A stretch of DNA of 64,000 nucleotides, from assembly GCA_030248295.1 (NCBI GenBank), contig JASANH010000559.1, positions 56,419 to 120,418 of the forward strand, written 5' to 3'. Below the pieces are notes generated by a model, which was not told where the DNA came from, made no database searches, and saw nothing but the letters and a program-made list of their open reading frames with translations. Shown one piece after another: positions 3,446 through 33,973 of the stretch (position 1 is its first letter; each line of letters begins with the position of its first letter). A program made the translations under genes and the position numbers. Source of the stretch: Mesodorylaimus sp. YZB2_4 (lineage: Eukaryota > Nematoda > Enoplea > Dorylaimida > Dorylaimidae).

Positions 3446-6292
3446 ATGCAGCGCGACGCTTCCGAGACTAGTGTCAAAATCATGAATAAAGCTTCTCGGC
3501 ATTGGATCAAACAGAAATTGAGAGCTGCTCGATGTTGGATTGCTGAATCTTGGATTGTCAAAAATTGGGATTTCCTTATGATCATAATAGCAACTAAATT
3601 CATCCTTTGGCTCATTCAAGCGCATCATCAAGCAACTAATCCGCCAAAACCAAGTATTTCGAATGAAGAAAGTTTTTCAATGTATTCGAATGAAGTACTG
3701 AAAGGAGGTGGGTCGCAATGTTTTTTGGCTTCGAAGCAGGAACAATAAAGCTTTTCTTTTTCAGTTATAAAGAATGAATCAAACTGGGCGTTCGGCAGCA
3801 GCAAGTTCGCCTCTGCTAGCATGGTTGCTGGGCAAATGAAAAGGTTCGACCGATTTGCTTATATCGAGAACGGACGACGTGGACACCCAAGGCACATTGT
3901 GCTATTTGCATTTTTCAATGGCTTTGTTTGCCCGGTATGGATATGAAATTTTCTAAAGAATAGATAGCGGCCATCCATTGAGGACAACAGGTTACCCCGG
4001 GGCGAGGGTGACAGAAAAGTTGGCTCAAGTGGATGGGGTGGGGGAAGCTAGCGTCCGCAGGAGGTCCACTTTAATTATCTAAATTATCAAAAAGGAAATA
4101 TGAGACATAAAATAACTAGTATTCAAATAATCAAATGATCATTGAACTCGATGATTTAAATATTGGTTTTATCGAACTGCGATGTAGGAGAAAGGAGAAT
4201 CGAAAGGAGCAGCCTAATTAGATATCTCTTATGGACATTTCAGTTTTTCGAAACAGTTTTCATGGACCAATTTGTTGCGGCGGATCGATCGATGTCAGAA
4301 GGTTTTTCCAGAGTGAGCATTTGCAATTGGGGTCTGCTATAGCGGGCGTCCACTTTTAGGGGAGCAAGGAAAAAATGACAGGTGATGGGGTGTCAAAGAA
4401 CTCAATTTTTGGGAGTATGTCTAGTTAGAATGACCAAAAAGGCATGCTAGCGTTCATGCGAAATTCGAATTGTGGTCGCATATAGATTCAGGGTCCCCGT
4501 CCAAGTAAAAAAGCAGCGTCTTGCATATTTTTGTCACTTTTTTTCCCTATGGAATACTAGCAATAAGAAACCGAATGTGAGTCAAACCACGGCCATTTCC
4601 CACACGAGTGTCGCGCAATTCGTACTGAACTACATATTTGTAAACCTACTCGGTTGGGTTCACTGGAACGTCCTACCTCGAAGGTACGCAACTCGCCTTT
4701 TCTCTTTCTTTATTCACAAGAGCAAGAGGAGAGAGACCGTCCAAGGAGACAACCCGAATCGCCAACCCCAATCCACGTGCGGACCTGTCCTTATATAGAC
4801 AGTCGCTCTAGACACGAACACACTAATTATCTGAGCCGTTCCTACCAAGTAAACACAATGAAGGATATCCAGACCACTAATTACAGCACGACACATTCAC
4901 TCCTATCTTCTTCCGTCCGTCCTGGCGCCAGTCGCCTGCTGGGACAGGCGAGGTCCACATTCTAATTACAACAAACTCCATATCTACGCCATTCGTGTAC
5001 AAGTCGGGTCACCGAAGGATATTGGTACATGCATTGTACTAATCAATCCTAGCTCAAACAAAATGTCAATCCTGTCGATTCAGACCATTCCTTATCTATA
5101 TAAGCTCATAAAAGGATATCCTACACTGTACAATATTTCATACAGGATACTATGCATCTCTTCATATTCGGAAAAGGAAAAGTTAGGGGAAAGTTTTTAG
5201 GTTTTAGTTTGCGTAATGATCGAGACGACCACACTGAGTAAACCAGCATGGCTAGCATGGATTTCCTTAGTACCATTTCGTTTCAGTCGTCTTCACGCTC
5301 CAGAAACGTAGGAGACCCATGTCGCACGTCCTACGCAACAATTCTTTGCGCTTTTCTTCTCATGATCTTCGCATCATATTTCACGGGGCCCTAATTTTTA
5401 ATGTTTTTGACGTTTTAGGATGTCGCTGATGCTGCAGAGAAAGAATTTATGCCGAACTTTGTCCAACTTATTGAAGATTGTTTGCCCAAGACGACCGAAA
5501 CGCTTGACAAAGTAATAATTTTTCAATAGTCTTCGCTGAAATATGTGGGGATGGTTGGAAACTATTGATTCGAAAAGCTACGAGCCTTTTTATTAGTCAT
5601 GAAATATATCCCCAGATCATTTCACATTTGTTTTATACTGTTTTATGTTGATATGCCGCATTTTATAGATTTTCGAGCATGCATTAGGTCAACTCACGGC
5701 AAAGTTGCGAAAAAATTTACCTCCAAACAGTATTTGCGGATCGACGGCGTTGGTTGGCGTGCATTACAAATCGAACACTACCTTATTCTCAATTGGCGAC
5801 ACTCGCGCTATTTTGACTTTTGGAAACGAGATTGGCGTTAACATCGACAAAAGAGCTGCAGAAGTAAGTTTTTCTGAAACAACTTTTCATTTTCCTATCG
5901 TAAAATTACTTTAGGGATTTCATCCGCTTTACCAAACCCACGATCCACTCAGTTGCCTCAATGGATTTTACCGTATCGGCAAAATGCGTACTTTCAGTGC
6001 CTTAGGAGTGCCTCTTTGTCAAAAGTACGAGTCGATAAATTCGCACGGGCGTCGTGTGGTGTTTCCTTTATGCACTGTTGCGCGCAATGACGAATGCGTT
6101 ACCGAACTTGCTGATTTGGTGATTGTAGGAACTAGCGAGTTTTGGGACTCAATGAGCTACAAAGAAGTCGTGCGTATTGCTAAACAATACATAAACAAGA
6201 AACCCTTTTATGCAGCCAAAGAATTGGTGAACGCGGCTTACCGAAAAAATGCTGGTGACCACATTGCTGTCATGATTATCAAGTTGAATTAA
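3446..6292 (+). CDS. Membrane-anchored PP2C-like pseudophosphatase A (six exons)
   Basis: I join exons 3446-3707, 3765-3934, 4244-4312, 5419-5511, 5669-5863 and 5915-6292; all junctions are GT-AG, the frame stays open and the product is 388 residues. Residues about 41-59 form one transmembrane segment. The rest follows the PP2C fold in order: WAFG near the first strand, VLFAFFNG in place of the usual FDGHGG, then ICGSTALVGVH and IGDTRAI (the PP2C GSTA and GDSRA motifs), LVIVGTSEFWD in place of ASDGLWD, and a final GDHIAV where PP2C has DNITV. Active PP2C enzymes bind two metals through Asp/Glu in these motifs. Here the DG of DGHGG is NG and the DG of SDG is SE, so catalysis is unlikely. Paralogues lie at 15906-18445 and 31946-33973. 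The start is the first ATG of a frame whose first intron phase matches both paralogues. A binding or regulatory role at a membrane is inference. Confidence 0.82.
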
Positions 6293-7152
6293 AATACCCG
6301 TATTTATACTGTATGTATGCTGGAGTTGCAGTAATCTACATTAGGCAGCGTGTGTCTACCTATATGGTCTTTTAAATTTTTTTCTTTCGGAGAAATATAG
6401 CTGTTTTTGTGAGAAACATTTAAACCAAGAATAGATTTTGTTTTTGTGCTAATCTAGCTTCTGAAGATTCAAGTTTTGTGATGAGGTCTTCGCCACTACA
6501 ACAGTTTATTAAATGCAGCTATTACAGAGCTGATGAAAGAATTATACCAAGCATGAGCAAGGGTGCCGAATTAATTCTTCCTCCACGCTTGCATCTATTT
6601 GATTATAAACAACTGCCCTGGTGTTTCATAGCCAGTGTTGATGTCAGCTCCAAGTGCATTGATGTTGCTCACGAAAAACTCCAGCGTGTAGAAGTCTTCA
6701 GATGATGAGCCTGTGTGCTTTAGGCCATTCTTATCGATAACTGTCTTTCCTGATGTCACGAAAATTCGCCTAAAGTGATCCAACTTACGGCATTCGTTTC
6801 AATCCTTTCCAAGTGCTGGACTTCTCCAATCGTCTTTGTAAACATTTTATCCGCAATCGAAGCACTTAACTTCTTTCCGAAACCGTCGTGGTTTCAGAAG
6901 ATGCAGAAGATGTTTTTTACTTAGGCTTCCCTTCTTTCTGTGCGAATGACTGATCATTCCCTCCTTGCTACTATTGCCCATCTCCTGAAGGCGTTTGCGA
7001 TGCAGCGAGGCGCTTTCCATATTGAGCAAAGTTGCACTTTCCAGCAGTAACCTTCAAAGCGGCTGCGGCGGAGGTATTGGTTTTCTTGTTCCTTTGGAAA
7101 TAGACGTCTCAATTTCAACATGAAAGCCTAAAGCTGACAAAAACCTGGTTCG
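6293..7152. other. Non-coding gap
   Basis: Between the PP2C-like gene and the gag relic I see no domain-bearing frame, tRNA or terminal repeat. The short open frames here are chance. It may include the decayed 5' end of the retroelement whose gag starts at 7153, but I could not find a long terminal repeat. Confidence 0.45.
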
Positions 7153-9340
7153 ATGAATCCCGACCAGCTGCGAGAACTCCTTGATGGTGTGGTACAACCA
7201 ACGATCGATGGCGTACGAGCGATCCTACCACAGCCACCACGTCTCGCTATAGCAGCAGCGGCTGACGAATCGTCAATGAAAGGCTCATCGCTGGTTTCAA
7301 GACTGAGCAGGTTTACAGGCCGTGATGACAATGAAACTTTCGATTCTTGGTTGAAAAAGTTTTCCCGCTTGTCAAAATTCGAGAAGTGGAACAATGATTG
7401 GCAAAAAGATGCGCTGGCATTATTTTTGGATGATTTAGCTCTCCTGGAATATGAGACATTAGCGGAAGAGGGAATGAAATTATTTAAAACACTGGTCGAG
7501 GCGCTGCAAGAGCGTCTTACGCCGGCTCGCCACAAAGATATTGCGGCTTCCAAATTACATTCAAGGAAGCAAGGGCGCAACGAATCGGTGTCGGTGTATG
7601 CCGCCCACATCAGCAAGCTAGCGGCAATCGCTTATGCCAGTCTGGAAGCCCCTGGAGCGCGACAAAATTATGTTGCAGATTTTCTTCAATGGTCTGCCTC
7701 CAGCATTGCATCGATTTACAATGGTGTCCAGACAGTTTCTAAGAGGCGGTCCAGGAGGCGAGGACGCAAGAAGCTTACGATCGTGCTTCAAGAGAAGAAC
7801 TTACTGCCACATTGACACAGTTATTTCAACCGACAACCGAGTCACGCGATCGGCCCTCACCACCCTTATTTGGGCCTCGCCAACGGCAGTCCCAGCCCAG
7901 GCAGGTTGGACAAATGGCGGTAGGTGGCCGAAATGGGCAACGCACGCAAAGTCTACAATGGGCAACGGATGGTCGTCCAATATGTTCGCTGTGTAACCAA
8001 ACAGGCAACAATCGACGAACAGCCGTCAACTGGGTATCAACTCACGCAGGCGCCAGTAGAGACAGGGTTGCCAGATGTGAAGGTTTCCCGTCATTTTTGA
8101 CGGGATTTTGGCCTAGCGGAGGTTTTTGTGGAGGGGACTGGTCAGTGGAGGTTTCGGTGAAGGTTTTTGCCATTTTGTGGAGGTATGAGGGGATTTTCTT
8201 AAACACCTTCTACTTTAGGCAAAAAAAGCACCAAATCGATCCGCTGCCCGTTATCGGTCCAAATTTTTTTTGCAAGTGCACGGCTTTCTCCCTGAATTCA
8301 AACTTTTTTCTTTGTATACACAGCATTACTATAAAGGGGACGAATCAATATATCCATACTCTATTGGTGATATTACTAGTAAGAATCAGGTGACTTAATT
8401 TTTTTAAAACTACACGCTTTTGTGCCTGAATGACCTTACGAATCTATTGCGTGGCTACAACAAGCCAATTTTTCTGTATGACAAAAATAGCAGTGGGGAA
8501 AAAACGGATCCTATAAGAGGATCCAGCTCATAAGACGAGCATGGCCCAGAAAAAATGCTAAAAAATTCGGGCCTTGCAATTGTCTCCTCCAGATGCATTT
8601 TAATAATGCATGCAGCATATGCATATTGTAGCATCTGCACACCAAGGAGCATCTCTGGTGAAATTATCATTTGAGGTTTGTTTTTCCTTTTTCAAGTATA
8701 AGCCCAAGTTTTTTGCGAAGAAATCTGAGTTTTCGCTTCCGGCGGGATCTCACGAATGATGGGACCTAGGAGAACTTTAAAAAGAAAAATCGATAGCTCA
8801 TCATCTCGGGATCATTGTGATATTTCTTGGATCATTCCAGGACCAAGGGTCGGGGAGATATGGGCATATCGCCGAAGCAACAAGTTTTTATGTGTGTGTT
8901 GAAGAAGCTCGAGGTACTACTAATCTTGCTTATGAGCCATTAGATTTTATCGAAGAAATGTTGCAGCTTGCAAGGCGCCGTTCAGTGAAAGCTTGATGCT
9001 CCCTTTGTCTGGCCTCGCTGTGATTCCAGCTCGTTGATACCTCAATCGTTTTTTTATGTGAGGGAATTATTGACGGCTTTTGGATAAGTGATGAAGGTTT
9101 TGTGAAGGTTTTCAGGGTCACTTGCGACGGGATTCACTTTTAGCGTCTGGCAACCCTGAGTAGAGACCAGAGGAACCAGGACGCTGGAAGGAACCGTCAC
9201 CAGCAACCGCGCTTTTCAGCAGCGACGATGGAGCAAGGACAAGAGCAAAATACTGAGATTCACGAATTGAGTCTGGACACGAGTCAGTTGGGGTTCGTAA
9301 GGGAGACAATAGGTTTGTGCCTTTTATTTCAGCAATGATT
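7153..9340 (+). pseudogene. Retroelement gag relic, frameshifted and split by a DNA transposon
   Basis: The frame from 7153 shows a Ty3/gypsy-like capsid: residues about 55-150 carry the helical pattern ETFDSWLKKFSRLSKF and LFKTLVEALQERLTPA. The reading frame changes near 7680 and again near 7740; further on, about 7960-8020, a degenerate zinc knuckle (CSLC...) lacks its histidine. The sequence is then cut by the element at 8063-9158 and resumes at 9167-9340 in an acidic, Gln-rich tail. No reverse transcriptase, RNase H or integrase follows, so pol has been lost. It is an old broken copy, not a gene. Which gypsy lineage it belongs to is unclear. Confidence 0.7.
8063..9158. mobile_element. Non-autonomous hAT-like DNA transposon, 1096 bp
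   Basis: The ends are CAGGGTTGCCAGA at 8063 and its inverted match TCTGGCAACCCTG ending at 9158. Both are flanked by the same 8-bp sequence AGTAGAGA (8055-8062 and 9159-9166), a perfect target-site duplication. An 8-bp duplication and CAGGG termini are typical of hAT elements. Inside I see no transposase frame; near the left end is a short palindrome around CCCGTCATTTTTGACGGG. It interrupts the gag relic, whose frame resumes after the right-hand duplication, so it is younger than that relic. Confidence 0.88.
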
Positions 9341-10829
9341 GCATGCATGTTCTTTTTGGGCGTAGCAGATGCACAGACATCGCCGCCGCGATTGCCGCCG
9401 CAGACCGTTACGCGTTACAGTTTTTGCCAGAAAACTTTGGGCGGCACATATTGGTCTTTTTCTAAGGAAGTACTTTATGATTCCCCACTAGGAGGAGACG
9501 TTACCCCAATCGCAGTGGAGATCTGGGTTCCTAAAAGGGCCGCAGTCCAGGTAGAGGGACACAGGTGCACGATTAGCGTTGTTACAGTTAACTGAAACTG
9601 AAACTGAATCTCCTCGCCAAAACTGAATTTAACTGTAACTGAATCTTTTTAGAATCAGTTAAATTCAGATTTCGAGTTACTACTCTTTTGAAAATTAATA
9701 ATCTGTTTGCGGATTTTCGTGCAGATCTCAAAGAGAAACGAAACGCAGCTAGACGAATTGCTGGTTCGAATCATCTTAATCGCGAGTTGGAGGTGTATTC
9801 TGTTATTCTTGAAACGCTGGTTATCTTTAAAAAAATCGATCCATTCGAATTTATGTCCAAATGTAGAGAGAAGTTGCAAAATCTTCACGAATATTGTAGT
9901 GCTTCATCATTTCCCGCAGGCTAGCGCCGAGTTAAAGAGTTATAAGCTAGGCGAGGTCCATGTTGAAAAGCAGTCGGTACAGTATCATAAAATAAAAGTA
10001 ACTACAGTTTATGAAAAAGGGTTTCTTCGGTTTCAATCATTTTATTACAAACATTTTAAAGTTACATCTTCTTGATCTTAGAAAGCTTTACCAACCAGTA
10101 AGTTGAACTTGACATGCTTACTTCATGTTATCGTCAGCAGCTGTCAGCTCCTAAAATCTTGCGGGTTTCTTGAGTTCGTGTGTTGCGAGGCGACAGAAAG
10201 TTGGCAAAGACTCGCAGGGCTCTTCTGAACCCGCTGTTATGGGCCTTAGTTCCGTCTTCCAGGCTTCTGGTTCTGAATTTTTTTTGCACAGAAGACCCGA
10301 CGAAGCGAGAATGTTTCCAAAAATTTGCAGGACTTCGGCCGCTGACCTCTGCTGAGTAGTTGGCCTGACGAGCTAAATATTTTGCGCAGAGCTTTCTTTT
10401 GGACCAAAAGAAATTACAATCATGAGCTATGGCGTTAGAATTAGAACGGTTACAAGGTTCAGGTACTTGGTCTGTCTGCGGATTTGTTGGTGGGTGGACT
10501 GTCGAGACATGGTCGTGCATCGCTGTGCTCGTAAAGGACCCTCTAGTGTTGACTTTGGTCTTTACTGCGCCTTGTGAGCTGTTTAAAGTCTGAAATGCGG
10601 AAGAGTAGTTATTTGAATTCAGAAAAGTGGAAATTGTTCTCGTCAAGTGTTCACATCTTAATGCGAAATGCTTTTAGGAAAAACTAAATCATTTAGTTAA
10701 ATTCAGTTAACTGAATCTTTTGAGATCCAGTTAACTCAACTAAAACTGAAACTGAATCTTTTTTTCAAAACTGTATCAACGCTATGCACGATACGCAAAC
10801 GGGAAGTTAGCGCGCACATGATTTTATTT
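9317..10829 (+). pseudogene. Possible env-like start of the same relic, split by a second transposon
   Basis: Just after the gag tail the sequence TTTTATTTCAG looks like a splice acceptor, followed within 5 bases by an ATG and a hydrophobic leader (IACMFFLGVADA), then a Cys-containing ectodomain-like stretch to 9573. The frame is interrupted by the element at 9574-10784 and continues for a short way until the G-run at 10830. In errantiviruses a spliced env follows pol, so an env remnant is one reading; a captured cellular secreted protein is another. I recognise no diagnostic motif such as a furin site or fusion peptide. Confidence in the env assignment is low. Confidence 0.3.
9574..10784. 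mobile_element. Non-autonomous DNA transposon with 8-bp duplication, 1211 bp
   Basis: The ends match as inverted repeats: TAGCGTTGTTACAGTT at 9574 and, inverted from 10784, TAGCGTTGATACAGTT. The flanking 8 bp TGCACGAT is present at 9566-9573 and 10785-10792. Next to each end are several ACTGAA/AACTGA motifs that act as subterminal repeats. An 8-bp duplication fits hAT-like or P-like integration, but the TAGCG terminus is not the classic hAT CAGGG, so the superfamily is open. Inside, 10330-10410 resembles one end of the MITE seen at 41241-41546. No transposase is visible. It is inserted in the env-like part of the older retroelement relic. Confidence 0.83.
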
Positions 10830-10853
10830 GGGGGGGGGGGGGGGGGGGGGGGG
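10830..10853. repeat. Homopolymer G tract (24 G)
   Basis: An uninterrupted run of G. Similar runs occur on either strand at about 14251-14272 (C), 16870-16882 (G) and 46599-46628 (C). The length may be uncertain because of sequencing error. Confidence 0.7.
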
Positions 10854-11106
10854 AATGGGTTAGTGTCAGATAGGGCGTCCGCGCAGGCGGTTTTGCCGCA
10901 AGAGTGCGAGCTAGCGAAAGCTCACAAGGGAAGATCGCCAAACGTAGTCGAACTTTGAGAAACGAAAAATTGTAATATGGTCCTAGGTGCAAAGAAAACT
11001 CTTTGCAAAATATCAGAGGCGTCTGGCCAACTGGTGTCAGTAGTGGTCAGCGTCCAAAGTCCTGAATTCTTGTGTGTTAACGAAGCTGAGCGTTGAGAAA
11101 AACCAC

Positions 11107-11570
11107 GGCCTCACTACTACTGTTATATGGCCTAGCAACCCAAATTTTTCGTGCGAAATGCTGCTAAGCAAAAAATGTGTGCGCGACCAAATGGGGCCAG
11201 CGAGGACCATTCCAAGCGACACGGAGAAAAATTGTGAGCGACGATAAATATTTAGAGAAGTTCGATGCAGAAAAGCGAGTAAATTATCGATAATTTTATT
11301 AGCTTTTTGATTGAGTAAAGTAAAGTAAGTATATGGAGATTTTTACGGATATGGATACGATCATTGCACGCAACTTTACTCTCTTTACGCAATTTACTCG
11401 CTTTTCTGCATCGAACTTCTCTAAATATTTATCGTCGCTCACAATTTTTCTCCGTGTCGCTTGGAATGGTCCTCGCTGGCCCCATTTGGTCGCGCACACA
11501 TTTTTTGCTTAGCAGCATTTCGCACGAAAAAATTTGGGTTGCTAGGCCATATAACAGTAGTAGTGAGGCC
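11107..11570. repeat. Long inverted repeat (about 180-bp arms, 105-bp spacer)
   Basis: The left arm 11107-11285 and the right arm 11391-11570 are near-perfect reverse complements, differing by a one-base indel in an A-run. The outer edges are GGCCTCACTACTACTG and its complement; the inner edges are GATGCAGAAAAGCGAGTAAATT and its complement. Mirror-image open frames on both arms are a by-product. Transcription through it would give a stable hairpin of about 180 bp. Just outside, 10985-11055 resembles the left end of the MITE at 41241-41546. Confidence 0.85.
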
Positions 11571-14185: not shown

Positions 14186-14320
14186 TAACAAACCAACCAA
14201 CAAACAAATCCACGCACAAAAAACCAAACCAAAAAAAACCTTCCCCCCCGACCCCCCCCCCCCCCCCCCCCCACACCCAAAACACAAACAAAAACAAACA
14301 AAAAACAAACCCCCAAAAAA

Positions 14321-14352
<32 letters not shown>

Positions 14353-15905: not shown

Positions 15906-18445
15906 TCATTCCTTGAATTTCACAGCCAATACCATAATGTGATCATAAGACTTATTCTTGAATGCTTCTTCCATCAAGTGATGAACCCCGACAACTGGGT
16001 CGTCCTGTAAAAACTTGCTAAAAATTACCATGGCTTGCTCAGTACTGATAGCATCCCAAAACCCATTCGATCCAACTATCAGACTATGCGCATTTTTGTT
16101 CCCATTTCCATCTTCGTGTGCTGAATAATGGGTTATTCCGACCAGTGTTTCGATCCATTTAAATTGTTGAAACATAATTGCTCCAAAAGCGCTTCCTGCG
16201 CGCAGAATTCCACCGACTCGCCATGCTCCGCGGATGAAGCTGAGAGTTCCGCCGGCTTCCGCAATTTCTTCCGCAGCCTAAAATATGAAGACCGCGATCT
16301 GAAAACGGAAACCTGATTATACCGCATTATTTGTTTGGTACTCGCTCCGCCGATTCAGGTTCTGTGTCTCTATACCACTCTTCATTGTACACCAGCAGAG
16401 CGCGATTGTCGCCAACATTAAAGAGGCTAATTGCAGATTTGTAGTGCACGCCAATCAAAGCAGTTGCTCCGCAAATACTAAATGAATCAATCCAGCGCCA
16501 GAAATTTGATAAAATTTTTTGTATTTCATTGAAAACAATCTAAAAAATTGTAGTGTCTAGCGTGGTTTCGTCTAACGACGAAACAGCAGAACTTACATGG
16601 TGCAGGTAAGAATCGTTGCCAGGCGATTCCGCAATAATTCTCTTTATTATAGCTGGCATCAGTTTGACTTCAACAAGTTTGGCAACTTCCTTCAACAAAT
16701 CACAGATGATAAAAGAGCAGTACAATGGACGACAACATATACTGACAATACCCACCCACCTGCCTACCTAGCACGCAGTGAAACAGTATCAATCTGCCAT
16801 AAGTGAGTTAGAACTTGAAAAACCTCTTGTCTGAAGGACTTTGCGTAGCGATCTTAACTATTCTTGCACGGGGGGGGGGGGGAACCTTGGGGAAGCAACC
16901 CGACACAACCCGACCCGGAAGTCCCTGACCCGAATTTGTTTTAAGCAGCTTAACTTCCTCGCGATAAAAACCATTCACAAATCTTCAGAACGTGGTTGCG
17001 TTGGTGCAAAGGTGACTTGAGAAAATATGAGATGGAGACATCTCACGCACGCGAACCTTCATCTTTTGTTATTCTTTAGTTATCCGTGGTAAATACAATG
17101 ACATTCCTTCATATTTCCCACAATAGTGGTCGAATAAATTTTTTTAAACCTTAGTAGATCTGAAAACGACTAGGGTCTGTCCGCTAGAGACAAGATTTAA
17201 CCAGTCGGAATAATAGGCGTGAATAATAGAAACAACTCTGTCATAACTTTTGGAGTCAGAGACAGGCTACTGGTTAAACAAAGAAATACCTAAGTATACA
17301 TTAACCCCACGTTAGAGTTGCATCTAGTCTTTAAAAAGGTCATATTGTGCTGGACACTAGCTCCTGTTAGAACCTTTGCTACTGATGGAGGAATGTGAGG
17401 TACCTGCGACTTTTGAATAGAGTGAACTGTTTTGCAATGCTAACATGGATGGTGGTCAAGGGGGGCTAGTATTGGTACATATTTGTTGTTTGGATACAGA
17501 CTACATTGCTCTTCCAGCCAGGTATACCCAGGAAGTTATTTGTCATGTTCAGGAATTAAATGTGATTGTGGATACCCGTAAGGCCTGCAAAAAATTAGCA
17601 ATTGCTTCTTAAAGTATGGCTAGTCGCACCCATTCGTCAGAGTTTACAAGAATGTTTATGAGAACTCTCAGATATGGACCCTTTCCAATGAAGGAATTAC
17701 TCAGAAAAATTGGTTATTCTCACAGCTTACAATTTGTCTGACAGGCTTGGAAGTTACGCAGAATAAAAACGTGGAATGAAAGACTTTGTGCATGCATGCA
17801 TAAAGCATATCCTGCAAATCCCGGAGTCAAACATCTATGAAAAGGTTCCTGTAGCTGCTACTAGTTACTTGCAAAATTGCTGTATTTTTGACCCGTTTGA
17901 CCCGATCTTTCAAAACAGTGACCCGACCCGAATTTGACCCGACCCGACCCGAAAGTACCCGACCCGATCCGGGGTCTACTTACTGGACAAAGGAAGCCGT
18001 TGATTAGAGCAAACACCATCAGTTGATCATTGTATTCTTTTTCTCCATTGTAGAAAAAAGTAAATCTGCCAAAGTTCTCCTTATCATTGACGGAAGCGCT
18101 GGCGACAGCAAATCTTTCGAGTCCAAACGACCAGCTAGACTTATTCTCGGCTAGAACGAAAAACATGGTAAAACAAGCTGGGAAGCATATGAATAGTTTA
18201 AAAACCCCACCATTCTTTATAAATTCGGTGTAGTTGGCAAATATTTTTTCTGGCTTGGAATATTCTAGCGACCGAGTTGAATGCATTGCGGCATGGACAG
18301 GTGGGTATCGACAAATGATAATTACGCTTTCGAGACCGATTAGCGCTGCTTTCCATAATAGACTAATCCAACCTCCAGTGGCTTTGAAGTAGCTCCTTAC
18401 TTTTGGATCCGAACTGCGATTCTGACTAATTTTACGATGGGTCAT
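15906..18445 (-). CDS. Membrane-anchored PP2C-like pseudophosphatase B
   Basis: Supported exons on the minus strand are 18445-18211, 18150-17984, 16689-16597, 16539-16342 and 16277-15906. Exon 4 is 93 nt, as in both paralogues, and exon 1 ends in the same phase. Residues about 25-46 form a transmembrane segment. PP2C landmarks are SWSFGLERFA, MVFALINGF (for FDGHGG), ICGATALIGVH, VGDNRAL, IAEAGGTL, RVGGIL and SLIVGSNGFWDAIS, where N replaces the metal-binding Asp of SDG; the late Asp is kept in YDHIMV. An exon equivalent to 4244-4312 of gene A is expected but not resolved; a candidate near 16755-16860 does not join in frame by eye. The gene is therefore either intact with an exon I missed or decaying. 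A 1.1-kb repeat fills the long intron and supplies part of the donor context at 17983. Confidence 0.72.
16890..17978 (+). repeat. 1.1-kb dispersed repeat with GACCC arrays at both ends, copy 1
   Basis: The unit starts with ACCCGACCCGGAAGTCCCTGA, here shown only in part, and ends with several GACCCGACCC words and GATCCGGGGTCTAC. The same sequence with the same ends lies at 29347-30332, and long blocks are almost identical, such as CTCGCGATAAAAACCATTC and GTCAGAGACAGGCTACTGG. Between about 17302 and 17620 the interior is replaced by a different sequence in the other copy. No coding potential. It lies in an intron of PP2C-like gene B. Confidence 0.85.
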
Positions 18446-21610: not shown

Positions 21611-21680
21611 CTATTTTGGAAGCGAGCAATTCCTGTAATGATATTTTTTGATCAAAGCTATCCCAAGCAATCCATCTTAC

Positions 21681-22087
21681 CTTGTCACCTCGAACGCCAA
21701 ATCCCGTTTTGCAATCGCTTCCGTACTAGCCTCATTTGCCCAATTCCAAAATGGCATGGGAATAGTTTGATTGAGTGATGAGCTAAAGGCGATTTCCAAA
21801 TTAGAAATGAATAATCTGTGCCACGTTAGCAAACCGGGGCCTTTTTCTGGCGCATATTCATATAAATATGCAAAATAATCCATCCACGTGGAATTGTTGA
21901 TCTGATCTCTGTCATGAGGGATAAAATAGGGTGCTTGCATAATTCGAGATAAATTCAAGGCCATTTGCACACTGCTAAAGTCATCATTCGCATTTACCAC
22001 ATCCAGTCTCACACGCAACTGTGCCTTTTTTTTACATGCACTCGATTCAGTAAATCCAAAAATACACTGTTCGCAAGCACTTGTAAA
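21681..22087 (-). CDS. Tyrosinase-like first-copper-domain exon, probably non-catalytic
   Basis: The exon is preceded by ATTAG (acceptor) and ends ACAAG|GTAAGA (donor). It starts with a Cys-containing stretch (SACEQCIFGF) as many tyrosinases do before the copper domain, then has the core GPGLLTWHRLFISNLEIAF followed by IPMPFWNWANE, which matches the tyrosinase FLPWHRxFL...LPYWDW pattern. Type-3 copper enzymes use three His in this half. Only the last (in TWHR) is evident: the positions expected to be His in the LH and aHxGPGF motifs read Tyr (YLYEY) and Glu/Lys (PEKGPG). This suggests a tyrosinase-fold protein without normal copper site A. The start of the gene and the second copper domain are not resolved. 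Confidence 0.62.
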
Positions 22088-25308: not shown

Positions 25309-26139
25309 TTAGCACTCAACGGGACGTAGTTCCGATTCTTTTATGACGATAATGCAGCGACGTGGCACCGAAATTATGGTCGACGTTTTGTTCATTAGCC
25401 AAATTTTCAACGTTTTGACCATTTTCCAGATTTCGATCATGCCGATGAGATGAATGAGAACCTCGACGGAGTTGATGAGATAGTTGACCACGATGAGCAT
25501 TTCGATGAGGCCTCCCATGTAGGGAGGATAATAGCTCGTCGGATACATATTGCCGTAAGTGGTGTACGTCAGGCCGAGGTCCGAGCCTAGGATAATTGAT
25601 AAGATGACGGCATACCACAGAACTGACGAGATACTGCCAAACAATATCAAGGCAAGGTAATCATCGAATTTCTTATGTTTGATTTTATCGGGACGTGAGC
25701 CAAAGACGACGCGATACATGTTAAACAACAGGCAAAGCAGGATCACGACGATTACGAATATCGGCCACGAACTGACGCAGTGACACTTACTCGTGTCGAA
25801 CTTGATCCCTTTTGAGTTCAATTCTTTAGCCGCCAGCTCGCAATGGGCGATTTTGCGCATGCTCGTAGAAATGCGAGTTTTCGGTGGAAGATGCCAGGCG
25901 CTGATCAACTGTTCATCGGTCACGTTGAAATTGGGAGACGGCGTGTTGCAGGCGAAGTTGACCATGTTCAATTTCATGGAGAACGGCCATTCGCCAGTAA
26001 TATTGCTCGAGTTGGCGTCGTCTTTTATGTAGCCTGGCGGCTCTCGCGTGTAGATTTGATCCGAAAATATGCTGGTCAATATAATGACGGAATGGATTGA
26101 GACGATCAAATTGATCAATTTGTGAAATAACGGATGCAT
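25309..26139 (-). CDS. Four-pass membrane protein with glycosylated-type loop, 276 residues
   Basis: A single uninterrupted frame starts at the ATG at 26139 and ends at 25309. Hydrophobic segments lie at about 5-25, 124-145, 161-183 and 208-234. Between the first and second is a loop of about 100 residues with four Cys (64, 100, 119, 121) and three N-glycosylation sequons (43, 46, 71), consistent with an extracellular domain. The fourth segment is followed by a basic tail. I do not recognise the family; the layout resembles small tetraspan proteins but lacks a CCG motif. It is not similar by eye to the four-pass family at 51-58 kb. Unlike its neighbours it has no introns in the coding part. 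Function unknown. Confidence 0.72.
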   Translation of the reverse strand: MHPLFHKLINLIVSIHSVIILTSIFSDQIYTREPPGYIKDDANSSNITGEWPFSMKLNMVNFACNTPSPNFNVTDEQLISAWHLPPKTRISTSMRKIAHCELAAKELNSKGIKFDTSKCHCVSSWPIFVIVVILLCLLFNMYRVVFGSRPDKIKHKKFDDYLALILFGSISSVLWYAVILSIILGSDLGLTYTTYGNMYPTSYYPPYMGGLIEMLIVVNYLINSVEVLIHLIGMIEIWKMVKTLKIWLMNKTSTIISVPRRCIIVIKESELRPVEC

Positions 26140-26775
26140 TCTGGCGCGAGTTAAAAAACCAATGGAAATTCGGAACTTTCAGCCTCACTACACTACTCTG
26201 CTCTGACCACGTCAGCAGAAAAGAGAGTGACAATGCGCAACAGCAGCGTGTTGCCTGGACTTTACACTCCTGGAAGTGACCAATAGCGTATGAAGAAACT
26301 GACGTGTGTGATCACGTCAATTGCATGAGATTGAAATTACCCACCCCTCAATCACAATGATCAAGGTTTTTCGGATCCCAAGGAGCCCAAGGATTGTCAG
26401 ATCGCCAGCACAAGGACTGCCTGATCGCCAGCACAAGGATTGCCCGATCGCCAGCCGAAGGATCGCTTTTTGACAAGCGAGATTGATGGGAATATCTCCA
26501 CAGGATCTTGTCTGTTTCTCACATTGCATTTTATCAGCTGCATATGGTATCGTAGTTTTGCCGCAGAATCACCAAAACAGCATCATCACGATACCAAATC
26601 GATCATCGCAGCAAATCTTCACCTCGCACAACTAGTCACAAACAAAAGGATCGCACTGTTTCAGTATCACTAATTGCTGAAAAAGGCTTCATCGCGCTCA
26701 AGTATTCCTCTCTCTCTCTCTCGTCGCCTGTTCATTCGTCGGTGTCGATTGGTGTCAGTGACTGGCTTGACACGC
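26140..26775. other. Short intergenic region with tandem repeat and CT microsatellite
   Basis: Upstream side of the 25309-26139 gene. It holds a 23-bp tandem repeat at 26388-26455 and a CT microsatellite near 26709-26722. No gene is supported. Confidence 0.5.
26388..26455 (+). repeat. 23-bp tandem repeat, three units
   Basis: Units of CAAGGAYTGYCNGATCGCCAG type occur three times head to tail, followed by a fourth partial unit (GAAGGATCGC). A short, non-coding array. Confidence 0.7.
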
Positions 26776-27952
26776 TCAACAATAGCATGTGGAGGGGCAA
26801 TCGATCCAAAGTCTATAGCCATTGGAGGACGAATTTATTTGTTGTCGGGCGCTGACTGCTCCTGATTTCCATATCGTCGATGAATGCGGGCAATCTATGC
26901 GCAAGTGCAACTCTGATCGAGGAAAGCCCTTAAACTCGCGCAGCGTCTTCAACGCGGCCTTGACTGTTGTCATGTCTGAGATGTCATAGATTGGCAGTCT
27001 TGTCAGCATCGGACAATATCGCACGAAAGCAACGATGGTCGATCGTTCGATTGTGTTGCAACACATGTGGACACGTTCTATACGACCACACTTGGCCAAT
27101 ATACACGCAGACCGAAATCAATAGGCGGGTTTGATTTTACATATCACGCCAGAATTCTAATTTCCGCAAATGGACTAACTTGGACAGGGCCCTGATTCCA
27201 CAGTCGGTGACCTCGTCCTCGCTGGACGAACGCCAGGCATCCAACGCTAATCGTCCCACCAGCTCGCAACAAGTCGACAGAATGCAGAAGAGGCGGTCAG
27301 TGATTGGTCGTTGATCAGACAAGTCCAGATCACGCAGAAAACGCATCTTATGCAGATTCGATACGTTTTCAAACATTCGAAATTAGAAATGCAACGACAA
27401 CAATTTGATTCTCCTGAGCAATGACGCCATGCCCAGCAAATCATTGATTGCTATTGATCGTCTACTAAAGTCATCATAAACGATACAGTCAAGTCTGCTA
27501 GAGTCGGATTACTTTGTACCAACTTGTGCGCGATGCTTTTGGCGCAGTGCTCAAATTCCAAATGTTCTATTCTCTAGCATTTCTCATCGAATATGATGGT
27601 TTTCAGTCGTTGTTAATTTGTTGAGCTCATTGAAAGTACCTTCACCATCCAACCGATTGGAATATTACCAAAAAAATGCATTTTGAAGTCGACTCTTCTG
27701 TATATCGAATAGCCCACATTGAAATCCTTCGAAATCGGCGACTGACACGACCCAAACGGATGCGCATTTTGAACGGAAGGTGTGTAAAGATGGTGACCCA
27801 AACGTGATCGGGAAGTCAAGAAAGTCGACTCGAGGTTTGCAATGGAAGATCTTCATCAACGTTTTGAGCATTCTGAACTTTGCGTCAGGAAGAATGTGCA
27901 GTGACGACAGGATTGAAAAAGCAAGTTCACAGAGTAGACAGCGATCGGGCAT
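26776..27952 (-). pseudogene. Leucine-rich-repeat (AMN1/FBXL-like) pseudogene
   Basis: Minus-strand pieces carry LRR signatures: a start-like piece from ATG 27952, then IEHLEFEHCAKSIAH, then LRDLDLSDQRPITD followed by GRLALDAW, DEVTDCGIRALSKL and LRKLEFW, then VRYCPMLTRLPIYDISD. LxxLxLxxC repeats of this type occur in F-box/AMN1 proteins, where they form a curved substrate-binding surface. No F-box is visible. The frame has a stop TAA at 27383-27385 in the middle of homologous sequence, and the last repeat block sits in another frame, so the gene looks broken. Introns could explain the frame change but not the in-repeat stop. Confidence 0.55.
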
Positions 27953-29346
27953 GACTTACAGCACCGCACACGGACACAGGGAAGCTATCCTGAGTAGTGT
28001 ACAGAATAGATTAGTCGTTTCGAAGGTCCTACTCCCAACTCTCCATGAAATATTACTTCCAAAACATGTGTACCAGAGAACGAAAAGGTTAGGCCAGCCA
28101 CCCTTCTCGTTCAACCAACTTCAAGGCCAGACTTGATTGGCTTCGCTCCCTTGGCGAAGCATGCCTTAGCGGGTTATGCTTTTCTAGTAATAAATACTCC
28201 CCATCACCACTCCTACACTCCCCCTCTGATATAATTGGTCCATTGTAAAATCAAGGGGTTGGGTCGTGACGAGATTTTATACAGTTTCTTACACCAAATT
28301 TTACACAGTTCGGAAACAGTGAGGACTAGTTCTCCGCTTAACATTGCGCGTCTGTTTGGCTGGGCTGAACAGGCAACTACCGTGCCGGTTGATAAGGGGT
28401 TAACATACGGTATTTCCTCGAAATTCCGGAGCATATTCATAACAAAATTTTCATCAAAATCTTCGATTTATTCAATCGAAAGGAACAACTGCCCCAGGAC
28501 TGCCCCAGGACCCGGGGTGAATGCACTGTTTTCGAAAACTTGTGCATATTCCCCAGATCTGGGTGCCCCAGCCGTGTCGGCCCAGCCCGTCGTCTTTTTG
28601 ATGAATTGTCAATTTATACTTCCACTATGGGGACCCCAGCTGGGTCATCCCAGCCTGGGGTACAATATTCCAATCAGCTTGAACATCAACCTCAAACTGG
28701 AATGGTCTTTTCTGTGCGCCACACCCCAGCCCCAGACCTCAGACGAAGTATGTAGGAGCCTTGACGAATTTGATCATGGCATGGCAGATACATAGCGATA
28801 TTTCGGAGTCCTACCGCGCCCCGTCAGCATTGTCCGCGTGGTGGCGCTTCAGATGCTCTGGAAATCAGCCTCAGCTAATGTCACCGTACATGATACTGCA
28901 AAGATTCGTAGTGCGACTGCGGACTCAGAATTCCAAGCAGCCAAAGCCGATGGTGAGCATATACATATACTGTACTTTACAGTAGAGCACCTTAACGTTA
29001 TGCGAAAGCCTTTGGAGTCTTTGGTTCTCATGACGAAAATTGGAATCAGTTACGCCCCCCCCACAATTCCGCCAAAAACTCTAATTATTTCCTTGACTAA
29101 AAGCGTTTCTTTTTGACCAATCCTGGTCGGTCCAGGGTGGCTTTGGCCCTTTACCCGCGGTCTAGGGGACTTGTTAGTTGACCCTAGCTTGCCATCGCGT
29201 AGTGTCATGCTGGGATGCATGCCAGGCAAGAGCGCGTGTTAGTCGCAGCCCCGCGATGTCGGCGATTACCCCGTTGGGGTAACCATACCCAGCTCGTGCC
29301 CCGTAAGGGGATCCGGATTCGAGAGCCTCCCGCCCCATAAGTAGAC
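27953..29346. other. Intergenic region
   Basis: The longest frame (28235-28795, +) has CCCCAG-rich repeats and no recognisable domain, so I do not call it. About 28480-28740 has CCCCAGC/GGGGT words at both ends, suggesting a small repeat. About 28814-28866 repeats the GCATTGTCCGCGTGGTGGCG block of 2582-2630. About 29200-29340 is GC-rich with a tRNA-like GGATTCGAGAG word and could be a SINE fragment. Confidence 0.45.
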
Positions 29347-30332
29347 ACTGGATCAGGTCGGGTTCAACCCGACTCGAAAGTCCCTGACCCGGATCCATTA
29401 TAAGCAGCTGAAGTTCCTCGCGATAAAAACCATTCACAAATCTTCAGAGCGTGGTGGCGTTGCTGTAAAGGTGACTGTGAGAAAATATAAGATGCAGAAA
29501 TCTCACGAACGCGAATTTTAATCTTTTGTTACTCCCTAGTTATCCTTATACACTGACATTCCTTCATATTTCCCACAATAGTGGTCGAATAATTTTTTAA
29601 AAACCTCATTAGATCTGAAAACGACTAGGGTCTGTCGACTGGAGACAAGATTTGACCAGTCAGAATAATAGGCGTGAATAATAGAAACAACGCTGTCATA
29701 ACTTTTGGAGTCAGAGACAGGCTACTGGTTAAACAAAGAAATACCTAAGTGATAAGAAGGGTCTCAAAGGACTGACGATTGGGTACTTGTTAGGGTGGTA
29801 AGCTAATTAAGGCCCTCCGGGGCTCGGCCTAAGGCTAGTGGTCAGTGGCTGAGGGGTGATAATAAGCTGCTATGCTAGCTGGGGGCTTCTCCCGCAGCTA
29901 GCTGCGCCAGCGCGACTGGCGCTATTACTACTAGTATGGCTAGTCGCACCCATTCGTCAGAGTTGACAAGAATGTCTATGAGAACTCTCAGATATGGACC
30001 CTTACCTATGCAGGAATCACTCAGAAAAATTAGTTGTCCTCACAGTTTACAATTTGTGTGACAGGCTTGGAAGTTACGCAGAATGAGAACGTGGAATGAA
30101 AGACTTTATGCATGCATGCATGAAGCATATCCTGCAAATCCCGGAGTCAAACAGCTATGAAAAGGTTTCTGTAGCTGATAGCTCCTAATAGCTCCTCCCT
30201 TCTGCTAATAATTACTTGCAAAATTGCTGTATTTTTGACCCGTTTGACCCGATCTTCCAAACGAGTGACCCGACCCGACCCGAAATTTAGCTGACCCGAC
30301 CCAAAAGTATCCGACCCGATCCGGGGTCTACC
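29347..30332 (+). repeat. 1.1-kb dispersed repeat with GACCC ends, copy 2
   Basis: It matches 16890-17978 at both ends and through most of its length, but the interior 29751-29935 is replaced by an unrelated GC-rich segment with a GCAGCTAGCTGC palindrome. The two copies therefore share a frame but carry different cores. Confidence 0.85.
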
Positions 30333-30463
30333 CATAAGGCCTCTCGTTTATCGACACCGGAGTGATGAAGGGTGAATCGCCCACCTTCAGGCGTGCGAGG
30401 CGCAGAGAGAACTTGAAAGCCTCTAAGAGTATTTCATGACGGTAAGTAGTCAGAACTTGCACT

Positions 30464-30561
30464 TTGTAGTTCATAATCGCTTTCTGGTGATCCCGCAATA
30501 ATTCGCTTTAGTATATACCACTTCGATATATCACTTCGACTTCAACCATCTCGGCAACGTT
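30464..30561 (-). pseudogene. Relic PP2C-like exon 4
   Basis: On the minus strand, NVAEMVEVEV followed, after a frame change, by KRIIAGSPESDYEL matches exon 4 of gene B (EVAKLVEVKL ... KRIIAESPGND). No other exons are visible nearby, so this is a decayed fragment of a fourth family member. Confidence 0.6.
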
Positions 30562-30635
30562 CTAGAAAAAATTGGAGTCTCTCAAACAGTACAATTATTG
30601 ACGGACCCATGCAATACTAACACAAAGGAGCAACA

Positions 30636-30935
30636 AGTACGACGTCGTACGCAAATGAACTACTGTATTTTTGACCCCTGTCGCAAAAAAAGGTTTTTCC
30701 GCTGATTTCCCTAAACATACCTTAAAGTACGCCATGTGGGCAGACCCTCTCCTTTTAGCCGTTTGTCTACAGTCGCATTCGGTTGACCTCAAGATTGCAT
30801 AATCTGAATTGAAACCGATCAAATATATAGCAAGAGCGTAACTAGGATTCTGTTTGATCGCCCATCTACGATTAAAAGTGTTTTTTGAGATTATCTAAAA
30901 TACGATTTTCTGACGGCGTATTTGTACCGGCCCCT
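30636..30935 (+). repeat. CGACGTCGT repeat, longer diverged copy
   Basis: It begins GTACGACGTCGTACG and ends GACGGCGTATTTGTACCGGCCCC, the same terminal words as the repeats at 253-350 and 2046-2146. The interior is longer and lacks the G-rich blocks. Confidence 0.45.
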
Positions 30936-31189
30936 AACGACAAACATAAGGGCCATAAAGGAAATAGCGGCAACAAACTTCAGAGAAGTATTTCTGAACT
31001 ATGTACACGTGATCACTCGTACAAGCGGCCCTGCGGATGGATATGAGGTTTAAAATTTGGGAGTTTCTTCGGTGGACATGCAACCAAACGCATGGCTGGG
31101 ATTGCTCGGAGTTTGAAACGGTAGCTACCTTCACCTTACTTCTCAGGGTCGTAGGGGGCCCAAGCCCCAACCACCCCCTGCGTACGCGC

Positions 31190-31262
31190 CTGTAGCGGGT
31201 TAAAGCGTCTGCCTCTCACGCTGGGCGCACTTACAGGGGAGGGTTCGACTCCCGTCTCGGTA
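31190..31262 (+). repeat. tRNA-like SINE head or tRNA pseudogene
   Basis: An A-box-like TAGCGGGTTAAAG is followed by an anticodon-loop-like CTCTCAC and an exact B box GGTTCGACTCC flanked by GGGAG/CTCCC. Stem pairing is imperfect and no intact acceptor stem is evident, so a functional tRNA is unlikely. The head of a SINE is a better fit. Confidence 0.5.
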
Positions 31263-31945
31263 TACAGTGATTGTCAAATATGTGTACCTTATGGTAAACC
31301 CTAAACCCTCGAGTGCGCCTTATGGTGCTTGGCTAGGGATAAAGCATTACATGTAATGCGACCTGTGCTAATTCAGTGGGGTGCAGACTTGACGCGACGA
31401 GCACGCTCTAGTTTCTTTTAGCCGCACATCTGAGTCCAGGCTGACAAAAAGCGATTATGAAAGATGCAGCCTGGCTTAAAGCTGGTCACAATGCACTCGC
31501 TGTTTTATGATTCACGACTAGCCCATGTCGACTAACAATATATGTCACTGGCTTGTGAAAGTGGCTAGAAACCAGCATCAGTTTCTTGTTCAATTCTTCA
31601 GGGGCTGTGTCATGAAAAAAGGCTGTTATTAGTAAAGCATGGCCCTATTAGCAAAACCAACCTCGCCGACTGTTTTACCTAAACTGTTTCAAATTCATGT
31701 ACTGAAGCTATAGCCAGCGCACAAACTTTGGCGCAAGATTAATCTTCAGATACAGTTTTGGCACATTTAATTTTCGTGCTGTGTTTATTAGCTCGCAGGC
31801 AGGGCATTTCGCCTAGCATAATGCAATGGCATGGGCATTACTCCACAGTATATGAAAGCTTTTGGTCAGCTAAACACCTGATTTACTAGCAAAAGTTGCC
31901 TATAACAAATAAAAGGGAGATAGTCATGGTCGAATCTCGATTACA
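31263..31945. other. Non-coding gap 3' of PP2C-like gene C
   Basis: I see no gene or clear repeat. It is probably the 3' flank of the gene ending at 31946. Confidence 0.5.
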
Positions 31946-33973
31946 TTAACTAGTACTGAATTTCACAACCATAACAGTAATACGATCCTGGGACTTGTTT
32001 CGGTAAGCAGCGCTCACCAGTTGTTCAGCAGCGAAATGCGGCCCCTTGTCGATGTACTTTTTGCCAATGCGCGCTGCGTCTTCGTTGCTCATGGTGTCCC
32101 AAAACCCGTTCGATCCCATAATTATAAAATCTAGCGGTCCCCCACTGCACTCAAAATCGCATGCATGGTGCCTGAGAAGATAACAGGCAAGAATAGTCCA
32201 TTGCCTGTGAAAAAACAAGGGAACGCCAAAAGCGCTGCGTGTACGAATAATTCCACCAATTCGCCAGGAACCATCAACGAAGTTAACAGAACCACCAACC
32301 TTAATCAGTTTTTCAGCTGCCTGAAAACGATTATTACAATAACAGCAAGAAATCTGGAAAATAACCTATTCGACCTGCTCAGCTTTCTGATCGTCAGTCC
32401 AGGCAATCTTCCTACCGGCACTGGTTAAAGCGCGGCTGTCGCCAACTGAGAAAATTGTCGTATTCGATTTGTAATGAACACCAAACAACGCCGTTGCCCC
32501 GCATAAACTGTTCTCGGGTAAAGCTCTTAGCGCCTCTACATGAACACGATTTACTGCATCTTTTGCTATCTAAACAGCACATCACCAAAAACTTTGCAAT
32601 ACAAATTTTCGAGTGTTCTACCTCGATTAATTCCTTCTCAGACTTCGGTGACGCTTTGACAATTCTGCCCATCATCATGGGCACGAGTTTTCTTTCCGCT
32701 ATATCGGCCACATACTGCAAAAAGCCTTGTACATCTGCCTGAAGGCTATCAGGGGATACACAGGATTCTATGCATAGCAAAAGGCAAGTGGGGCGTACAC
32801 TTCGCCCCTCAATCGAAACTTGTTCAATGAGTTTCAACAAAATGAATGCGCATTTTGCGCCCTTCTGGTTCTAACCGCTGTAAGCTTGCTTGGGTTACTC
32901 AAGGAGTTGAGCCTATATATCAGAAGGGGACCGCATCAGAAGGGTACATCCTACGGCAATGTTTCCAGCGGGCTTATTTACACCTTGTCATAAGCAGTTT
33001 TGAGTGTCCAAAGTGTGCGCGGTCGGCCAGTTTCCGCATTGCATTTTTGAAGTTTAAAAATGACAAAGACGCAAAAAGAAGAAGTTTCGACGACACTTAC
33101 CCGTTAATGCTAAATTTTCAACCGTTTTATGAGCGACTATCCCGGCAGGTCCAGCCCGGTAGGTCCAACTTCTTGGGTTACTGTACCTTACAAAGCAGGT
33201 CATGCTTGTAAGGTACAGTAACCCAAGAATTATTGGCACCCCCGCCCCCAAATTTTCTCCAGTACGGTGGGGTATCTCATTCCCTAATCCAGTCCACAGC
33301 ATTTCAAATGCAGTAGTGACGCTTGATATGACTATGCAGTAGTGCATACACAAGGAGATCGTGTATGACGAAACTGTTTATGTAGTGCTGTAAGGAAATG
33401 GCTAAAACTGGCGCTGACTTGGCTTCTCAAGAGCTTTTCTTCGAGCCCTATGCCAAATCCCAGCTAAAAAGTACCCAAGAAAATTATAACTTATTCTTTC
33501 TTACCGGGCAAATAAACCCGTTGAAAAGAGCAAACATTAGGAAACGATCTTTGTCTTCAGTTTCTTTGTTATCGATAAAAATAAATCGATCGAATCTTTC
33601 CATGCTGCCGGCTGGCAAACTAGCGACAGCAAATTTATCATGCGCGAACGTCCAGTTCGATTGCGTTTTGACTAAAAATGGAAAACTTCGTTTCCTTAAA
33701 ATTGAGTAGATTCTCATACAGTAACTTACTTCCTTTCACTGAACTACTAGAAATCACTTCGAATCCACGTTTCTTCAAAGAATGTAAACTATGTTCTGGA
33801 TGTTCCCTCGTATAAACACTGTCGGATCTTTGGGGCACGGCTCGAAAATGCCAAGCGGCGATTGCGAACAACACTCCGATGACAGCAATTGGCCATATTT
33901 TCTTTGTCCAAGCTCGATTAGTTTCAAGATTGCTTCCGATTTTTCGACTCAAAGAGCGTTGTTTTCGAGCCAT
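31946..33973 (-). CDS. Membrane-anchored PP2C-like pseudophosphatase C (six exons)
   Basis: Minus-strand exons 33973-33730, 33671-33505, 32870-32799, 32714-32622, 32569-32375 and 32320-31946 join in frame into about 381 residues. Exon 4 (93 nt) and exon 5 (195 nt) equal those of gene A, and exon 2 (167 nt) equals that of gene B. Residues about 26-42 form the single membrane segment after a basic N-terminus. PP2C landmarks are NWTFAHDKFA, FLMFALFNGF (for FDGHGG), LCGATALFGVH, VGDSRAL (canonical), KVGGSVNF, WRIGGII, FIIMGSNGFWDTMS (N for the metal Asp of SDG) and QDRITVMVV (Asp kept). Metal ligands are lost at two core sites, so catalysis is unlikely. The donor after exon 5 (GTCGAA) is weak. 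Intron 2 contains a dispersed repeat and a perfect hairpin. It is the best preserved paralogue with gene A. Confidence 0.8.
32880..33040 (-). repeat. Dispersed repeat in intron 2 of gene C
   Basis: Reverse-complement copy of the repeat at 11571-11760, with the blocks CAGCGGGCTTATTTACACC and CAAAGTGTGCGCGGTCGGCC. Confidence 0.65.
33172..33227. repeat. Perfect 22-bp hairpin
   Basis: The stem CTTGGGTTACTGTACCTTAC and two more bases pair exactly with 33206-33227; pairing continues as GCA/TGC after one bulged A, leaving a GGTCA loop. It lies in intron 2 of PP2C-like gene C. Confidence 0.8.

What the first reader, a model, noticed from the sequence alone, without database searches (positions are those of the whole stretch)
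3446..33973. Family of membrane-anchored pseudo-PP2C proteins with conserved gene structure
Three genes (3446-6292, 15906-18445, 31946-33973) encode one transmembrane helix followed by a PP2C fold in which the DG of DGHGG is NG and the Asp of SDG is Asn or Ser, while GDSRA-like and late-Asp motifs stay. Exon 4 is 93 nt in all three, exons 1-2 share phase-1 introns, and exon 5 is 195-198 nt. Loss of metal ligands across paralogues with kept structure points to selection for a non-catalytic role, such as binding a phosphoprotein or regulating a true phosphatase, as the PP2C-like TAB1 does. I know of no described family with this anchor plus dead PP2C layout.
Basis: partly seen in the sequence, partly recalled or inferred. 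Interest (0 to 1): 0.8.

Follow-up and report, generated by a model that had tools for sequence, protein, structure and literature searches.

The report
Amplified dead PPM1L-type membrane phosphatases
In what is most likely a nematode genome, a membrane-anchored phosphatase (PPM1L) has been copied into a family of at least 28 gene loci; the copies that could be read have lost residues needed for catalysis, yet those that could be compared still evolve under constraint, so they likely work as inactive regulators or decoys rather than as enzymes.

Summary
All three genes rebuild as uninterrupted five-exon genes at the stated coordinates: one predicted membrane helix in exon 1, then a PP2C domain in which DGHGG is NGF and the Asp of SDG is Ser or Asn. 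They belong to a larger family: at least 28 loci on eight contigs of the same genome, 25 readable at SDG, none with the Asp. Two further genes keep all catalytic residues and share two of three intron places exactly, the third within two columns. Named relatives of the one searched are PPM1L, a phosphatase anchored by an N-terminal helix. Without the catalytic columns, 21 modelled inactive members form one group (99/98) beside the second intact gene (93/94), within PPM1L. dN/dS is 0.20-0.51 in 14 measurable pairs. So the anchor is inherited and the dead site derived. A search for relatives of gene C gave none at E 1e-5. The role is inferred only: binding PPM1L's phosphorylated targets, or PPM1L, without removing phosphate. 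A flip to the lumen was tested and not supported. Expression and fold were not tested.

The parts
3446..3707 (+). Gene A exon 1: N-tail and predicted transmembrane helix (about 3566-3622)
   Evidence: Spliced model with phase-1 donor; hydropathy 1.66 over 19 aa
3765..3934 (+). Gene A exon 2: start of PP2C domain, ends after FNGFVCP (site of DGHGG)
5419..5511 (+). Gene A exon 3 (93 nt)
5669..5863 (+). Gene A exon 4 (195 nt), GSTAL and GDTRA motifs
5915..6292 (+). Gene A exon 5 with stop; GTSEFWD in place of SDGLWD, late Asp kept (GDHIAV)
18211..18445 (-). Gene B exon 1: N-tail and predicted transmembrane helix (about 18311-18367)
   Evidence: hydropathy 1.98 over 19 aa
17984..18150 (-). Gene B exon 2, ends after INGFLCP
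16597..16689 (-). Gene B exon 3 (93 nt)
16342..16539 (-). Gene B exon 4 (198 nt), GATAL and GDNRA
15906..16277 (-). Gene B exon 5 with stop; GSNGFWD, YDHIMV
33730..33973 (-). Gene C exon 1: N-tail and predicted transmembrane helix (about 33833-33889)
   Evidence: hydropathy 1.78 over 19 aa
33505..33671 (-). Gene C exon 2, ends after FNGFICP
32622..32714 (-). Gene C exon 3 (93 nt)
   Evidence: Acceptor chosen by agreement with A and B; frame holds
32375..32569 (-). Gene C exon 4 (195 nt), GATAL and GDSRA
31946..32320 (-). Gene C exon 5 with stop; GSNGFWD, QDRITV

Best explanation
These genes belong to a family of at least 28 loci that descends by duplication from the membrane-anchored phosphatase PPM1L, and because the copies that could be read have lost catalytic residues they are predicted to be inactive and likely act at the ER membrane as decoys that bind PPM1L's phosphorylated targets, or PPM1L itself, without removing phosphate. 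Shown by sequence: descent from PPM1L with shared intron places; loss of the SDG Asp, the MED Glu, the DGHGG His and the ALGD Asp in the modelled members, with the DGHGG Asp lost as well in the branch that holds genes A-C; constraint on the coding sequence. Predicted: the membrane helix in exon 1 and the lack of metal-dependent catalysis. Inferred and untested: ER location and cytosolic facing inherited from PPM1L, binding to phosphoproteins such as IRE1, and a net effect of shielding phosphorylation. The clustering of divergent copies would fit a role that is repeatedly re-tuned, such as stress or defence signalling, which is also untested.
For: Relatives with a specific name of the intact paralogue C118:209279-210836 are called protein phosphatase 1L, 39-47% identity in the 120 listed of 6645. 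PPM1L is ER-targeted through an N-terminal transmembrane motif and acts on IRE1 and TAK1 (passages of PMC9107372; PMC4219728). In 23 modelled own-genome genes (21 inactive, 2 intact) a phase-0 intron falls at the same place just after DGHGG in 23 of 23; the second place is held by 21 of 23; the third by 20 of 23, the other 3 (both intact genes among them) lying two columns away. Tree rooted on three of the genome's other PP2Cs, catalytic columns left out: 21 inactive members form one group, 99/98, next to the intact C2:2392609 gene, 93/94. Of 21 modelled inactive domains: H62 in 0 of 21, ALGD Asp in 0 of 21, E37 in 0 of 19 readable, D60 lost in 12, G64 to Cys in 19. D239 absent in 25 of 25 readable loci of 28. 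dN/dS 0.20-0.51 in the 14 measurable of 15 inactive pairs chosen; codon bootstrap reached 1 in 0 of 500 for 13 of these and in 28 of 500 for the closest pair. Nine of 12 inactive genes tried besides A-C gave a candidate exon 1 with a hydrophobic stretch before the phase-1 intron; the ranking rewarded hydrophobicity, so this is not a blind test.
Against: No expression data. The family was not found outside this genome, though that search did not return PPM1L either and so is weak for distant relatives. Nesting inside PPM1L rests on forks of 92/89 and 93/94, below the starred level. Catalytic columns are not preferentially lost against other PPM1L-invariant columns. A second estimator gave higher dN/dS, 0.28-0.59 in six pairs (YN00). 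No anchor exon was found for the intact C118 gene, nor for C275:40520 and C118:261422. PHLPP2 and TAB1 keep a single metal ion (PMC12002173 passages), so loss of ligands need not mean an empty site. Nothing tests location, partners or phosphobinding; in A-C the phosphate-binding Arg (R33, role recalled) is gone, which weakens a phosphate-reading role for this branch.
Confidence: 0.4

Rival explanations
1. The proteins were turned round to face the lumen or outside of the cell and became glycosylated cell-surface or secreted binding proteins, which made a cytosolic phosphatase site useless.
For: In 7 of 7 genes of the A-C branch with a modelled N-tail there are more Lys/Arg in the 20 residues before the helix than after it, against 11 of 81 PPM1L controls; with 15-residue flanks the difference gives p 0.026. 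A sequon (KSNTT) recurs at one place in 6 of 8 domains, and 13 other inactive domains hold 38 forward to 11 reversed sequons.
Against: In the A-C branch sequons are no more frequent than in controls: mean 2.0 per domain against 2.93 in 97 PPM1L domains, which themselves show 284 forward to 180 reversed; by distinct columns all inactive members give 25 to 14, close to the control ratio. The rows are related, so the charge p-value overstates. With 10-residue flanks 3 of 7 have more charge before the helix, controls 34 of 81.
Confidence: 0.2
2. The family is drifting: relics of a burst of tandem duplication with little function.
For: Several loci are broken or partial: two C199 copies with only some exons, C275:36788-38145, C35:195796-196134; such loci were left out of the dN/dS. 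Long branches.
Against: dN/dS 0.20-0.51; no stop in the A, B, C frames; the same replacement residues recur, such as Phe/Tyr at E37 in 18 of 19, Cys at G64 in 19 of 21, Asn at D239 in 17 of 25.
Confidence: 0.15
3. They still bind one metal ion and have a changed chemistry, or act as single-metal structural proteins like PHLPP2.
For: Nine of 21 keep D60, 16 of 20 readable keep D38 and 18 of 20 readable keep D282; a Cys sits at G64 in 19 of 21. PHLPP2 holds one zinc, most likely through one Cys and three Asp (PMC12002173 passages).
Against: The A-C branch has lost D60 in all 8 members. The Cys of PHLPP2 was not matched to G64 here.
Confidence: 0.2

Closest known systems
PPM1L (PP2C epsilon, PP2Ce)
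   Same: N-terminal membrane helix plus PP2C domain; parent group in the tree; the two intact paralogues in this genome share intron places with the dead copies, two exactly and the third within two columns.
   Different: PPM1L is a working phosphatase for IRE1 and TAK1 (PMC9107372 passages) and the PPM1L proteins aligned here keep every catalytic residue; these copies do not, and they are many.
PHLPP2 (pseudophosphatase PP2C)
   Same: PP2C domain that lost metal ligands and activity from an active ancestor (PMC12002173 passages).
   Different: Protein with PH and leucine-rich repeats, one of two paralogues; keeps one zinc; no membrane helix (recalled).
TAB1
   Same: Dead PP2C fold used as a regulator (recalled); one Mn in its M2 site (PMC12002173 passages).
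   Different: No membrane helix and binding of TAK1 by a C-terminal tail (both recalled); genes A-C end 9-11 residues after the domain match.

Membership tests
PPM1L phosphatase | falls inside the PPM1L clade | tested here: met
   Nested: 99/98 for the inactive group, 93/94 for its union with the intact C2 gene, 92/89 for the nematode side
PPM1L phosphatase | single N-terminal transmembrane helix before the PP2C domain | tested here: met
   By hydropathy only, in A, B, C and in 9 of 12 other inactive genes tried, with a ranking that rewarded hydrophobicity
PPM1L phosphatase | complete catalytic set (E37, D60, H62, D239, D282; PP2C alpha numbering recalled) | tested here: not met
   E37, H62 and D239 lost in every readable modelled member; D60 lost in A-C. 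So a descendant of PPM1L, not a member of the enzyme family
PPM1L phosphatase | ER location | not testable with these tools
   needs imaging or fractionation
PP2C-type pseudophosphatases | PP2C domain kept end to end | tested here: met
   Best stretch covers PF00481 10-255 of 255 in gene C and 29-253 in B; in A 202-254 only, whole-protein E 5e-11
PP2C-type pseudophosphatases | no catalysis in vitro | not testable with these tools
   inferred from lost ligands
PP2C-type pseudophosphatases | retained under selection | tested here: met
   dN/dS 0.20-0.51 in 14 pairs, one further pair saturated
TAB1 | C-terminal TAK1-binding segment after the domain (recalled) | tested here: not met
   A-C end 9-11 residues after the domain match

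The most novel reading that the evidence does not exclude
One animal lineage has turned an ER membrane phosphatase into a multigene set of dead, membrane-tethered phosphosite guards that compete with the last two working PPM1L enzymes, giving the cell a tunable brake on dephosphorylation of IRE1-type stress kinases; a whole repertoire of pseudophosphatases made from one enzyme.
Probability: 0.25. Interest if true: 0.8.

Novelty: new variant of a known kind. Interest (0 to 1): 0.6.

Why it matters
The pseudophosphatases of the PP2C fold that I know of (TAB1, PHLPP2; recalled) are one or two genes per genome. Here one inactive group has been amplified to at least 28 loci, with different degrees of loss (E37, H62, D239 in all readable modelled members; D60 in only some) side by side with two intact relatives in one genome. 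That makes the order of events in becoming a dead enzyme, and what a dead phosphatase is kept for, directly testable.

Tried and rejected
Lumenal flip: tested by charge bias and sequons; kept only as a rival. Selective loss of catalytic columns: not significant. Relatives elsewhere: gene C found none at E 1e-5 among 4944 candidates; the search is limited to shared 5-residue words and did not return PPM1L. Organism: SL1 leader not found with up to 2 mismatches; nematode is inferred from 27 TTR-52 matches and two Srx receptor matches in the window; that these families are nematode-bound is recalled. The ribosomal RNA search did not complete. Score level of the spliced aligner: stretches on the wrong strand or without a family gene reached up to about 120, other PP2C genes 122-168, so models under 200 were not used in the table, tree or dN/dS. 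Literature: searches listed no paper on a nematode PPM1L expansion or an anchored dead PP2C family; listings only, apart from passages of PMC12002173, PMC4219728 and PMC9107372. Rows left out: 7 of the 28 loci (C118:272148, C35:182396, C35:190719, C35:195796, C35:168327, C275:35468, C244:38331) and the two C199 copies are not in the motif table, tree or dN/dS because only part of the gene was modelled; 16 residues were trimmed from the end of C35:165770. The dN/dS pairs (15 inactive, 1 intact) were chosen by me among close and window-gene pairs, not all pairs.
Full report
What is there. The window is part of contig C275 of an unnamed 145-Mb genome. Genes A (3446-6292, +), B (18445-15906, -) and C (33973-31946, -) rebuild as five-exon genes without internal stops. 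Intron 1 is phase 1 and the others phase 0; the third exon is 93 nt and the fourth 195, 198 and 195 nt.

The domain. The best Pfam PP2C stretch covers profile positions 10-255 of 255 in gene C (E 3.4e-13), 29-253 in B, and only 202-254 in A, whose whole-protein E is 5e-11.

The family. Searching the genome with PF00481 (46 matches) and with gene C's protein (56 matches) shows clusters on C275, C91, C115, C35, C118, C237, C310 and C244, and pieces on C199. Counting one place per last exon, whole or partial, gives 28 loci on the first eight contigs besides two intact ones. In 25 of the 28 the SDG position could be read: 17 Asn, 3 Lys, 2 Ser, 2 Arg, 1 Gln, 0 Asp. Three were not read (C275:38032, C35:195796, C35:168714).

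The parent. Two genes keep every catalytic residue: C118:209279-210836 and C2:2392609-2393835. A protein search with the first gave 6645 matches among 7982 scored candidates; of the 120 listed, those with a specific name are called protein phosphatase 1L, 1L-like or 1Lb, the rest hypothetical, PPM-type or unnamed. PPM1L is held in the ER by an N-terminal transmembrane motif and acts on IRE1 and TAK1 (PMC9107372 passages; PMC4219728 passages). In 23 modelled genes, 21 inactive and 2 intact, one phase-0 intron sits at the same place in 23 of 23, the next in 21 of 23, the third in 20 of 23; the other three, both intact genes among them, have it two columns away. A tree without the motif columns, rooted on three of the genome's other PP2Cs, puts all 21 inactive rows in one group (99/98) beside the C2 gene (93/94), inside PPM1L (next fork 92/89). 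The tree with all columns separates the six active PPM1L rows from the rest, 100/99. The simplest reading is that the membrane anchor is inherited and activity was lost once.

Stages of loss. In one search, 21 inactive domains: H62 in 0 of 21, the ALGD Asp in 0 of 21, E37 in 0 of 19 readable (18 Phe or Tyr, 1 Leu), D60 kept in 9 of 21, D38 in 16 of 20 readable, D282 in 18 of 20 readable, G64 to Cys in 19 of 21. The eight genes of the C275/C91 branch, with A-C, have in addition lost D60, R33 and N283; four members outside it have lost D60 too, so that loss probably happened more than once. Residue numbers follow PP2C alpha and are recalled. Against a neat story, the ten catalytic columns were not lost more often than 58 other columns that are invariant in six PPM1L proteins (Fisher p 0.16 for the A-C branch, 0.09 for seven other members).

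Selection. Of 15 inactive pairs that I chose, dN/dS was 0.20-0.51 in 14 and not measurable in one (B-C, saturated). In 500 codon bootstraps it reached 1 in none, except 28 times for the closest pair. For the three measurable pairs that hold gene C, dS is near or above 1.9, so those values are rough. The YN00 estimator gave 0.28-0.59 for the six closest pairs.

Anchor and facing. A hydrophobic stretch precedes the domain in A, B and C (19 residues, hydropathy 1.66-1.98). Of 14 other genes tried, 10 gave a candidate exon 1 with one: 9 of 12 inactive genes and the intact C2 gene, but not the intact C118 gene; the ranking rewarded hydrophobicity. I tested whether the dead proteins had been turned to the lumen. 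Lys/Arg lie more before the helix than after in 7 of 7 genes of the A-C branch with 20-residue flanks (controls 11 of 81), p 0.026 with 15, and 3 of 7 (controls 34 of 81) with 10. Sequons in this branch (mean 2.0) are no more frequent than in 97 of 116 PPM1L proteins used as controls and assumed cytosolic (2.93); 13 other inactive domains gave 38 forward to 11 reversed, which counting by column reduces to 25 to 14 over all inactive members. The flip is not supported; inherited facing is the default.

Mechanism. Descent and constraint are shown; inactivity is predicted; the rest is inference. A membrane-tethered PP2C fold that cannot catalyse could hold PPM1L's substrates or PPM1L itself. TAB1 and PHLPP2 are precedents for dead PP2Cs (PMC12002173 passages). 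The loss of R33 in A-C argues for protein surface binding more than for phosphate reading there.

Limits.

Noticed in passing
window 34766-40533 (-): Retroelement with reverse transcriptase, RNase H and integrase domains in one open frame and gag/protease in the next (Pfam), about 0.8 kb from gene C; long terminal repeats were not looked for.
   Followed up: partly
window 45550-46752, 54970-56127, 61646-62611 (all -): Three alike seven-helix receptor genes (by eye); two of the three match the Srx chemoreceptor family.
   Followed up: partly
window 49741-50130 (+): Part of a glycosyl hydrolase family 25 (lysozyme-like) gene.
   Followed up: no
window 21677-22087 (-): Open frame with the tyrosinase central domain.
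   Followed up: no
   Followed up: partly
G000 C199:17830-19758 and C199:49766 onward: Two alike partial copies of the family for which no last exon was found, probably relics.
   Followed up: no
G000 C310:11182-14478: Candidate exon 1 of this member encodes a long, repetitive Glu/Thr/Lys-rich stretch between helix and PP2C domain.
   Followed up: no
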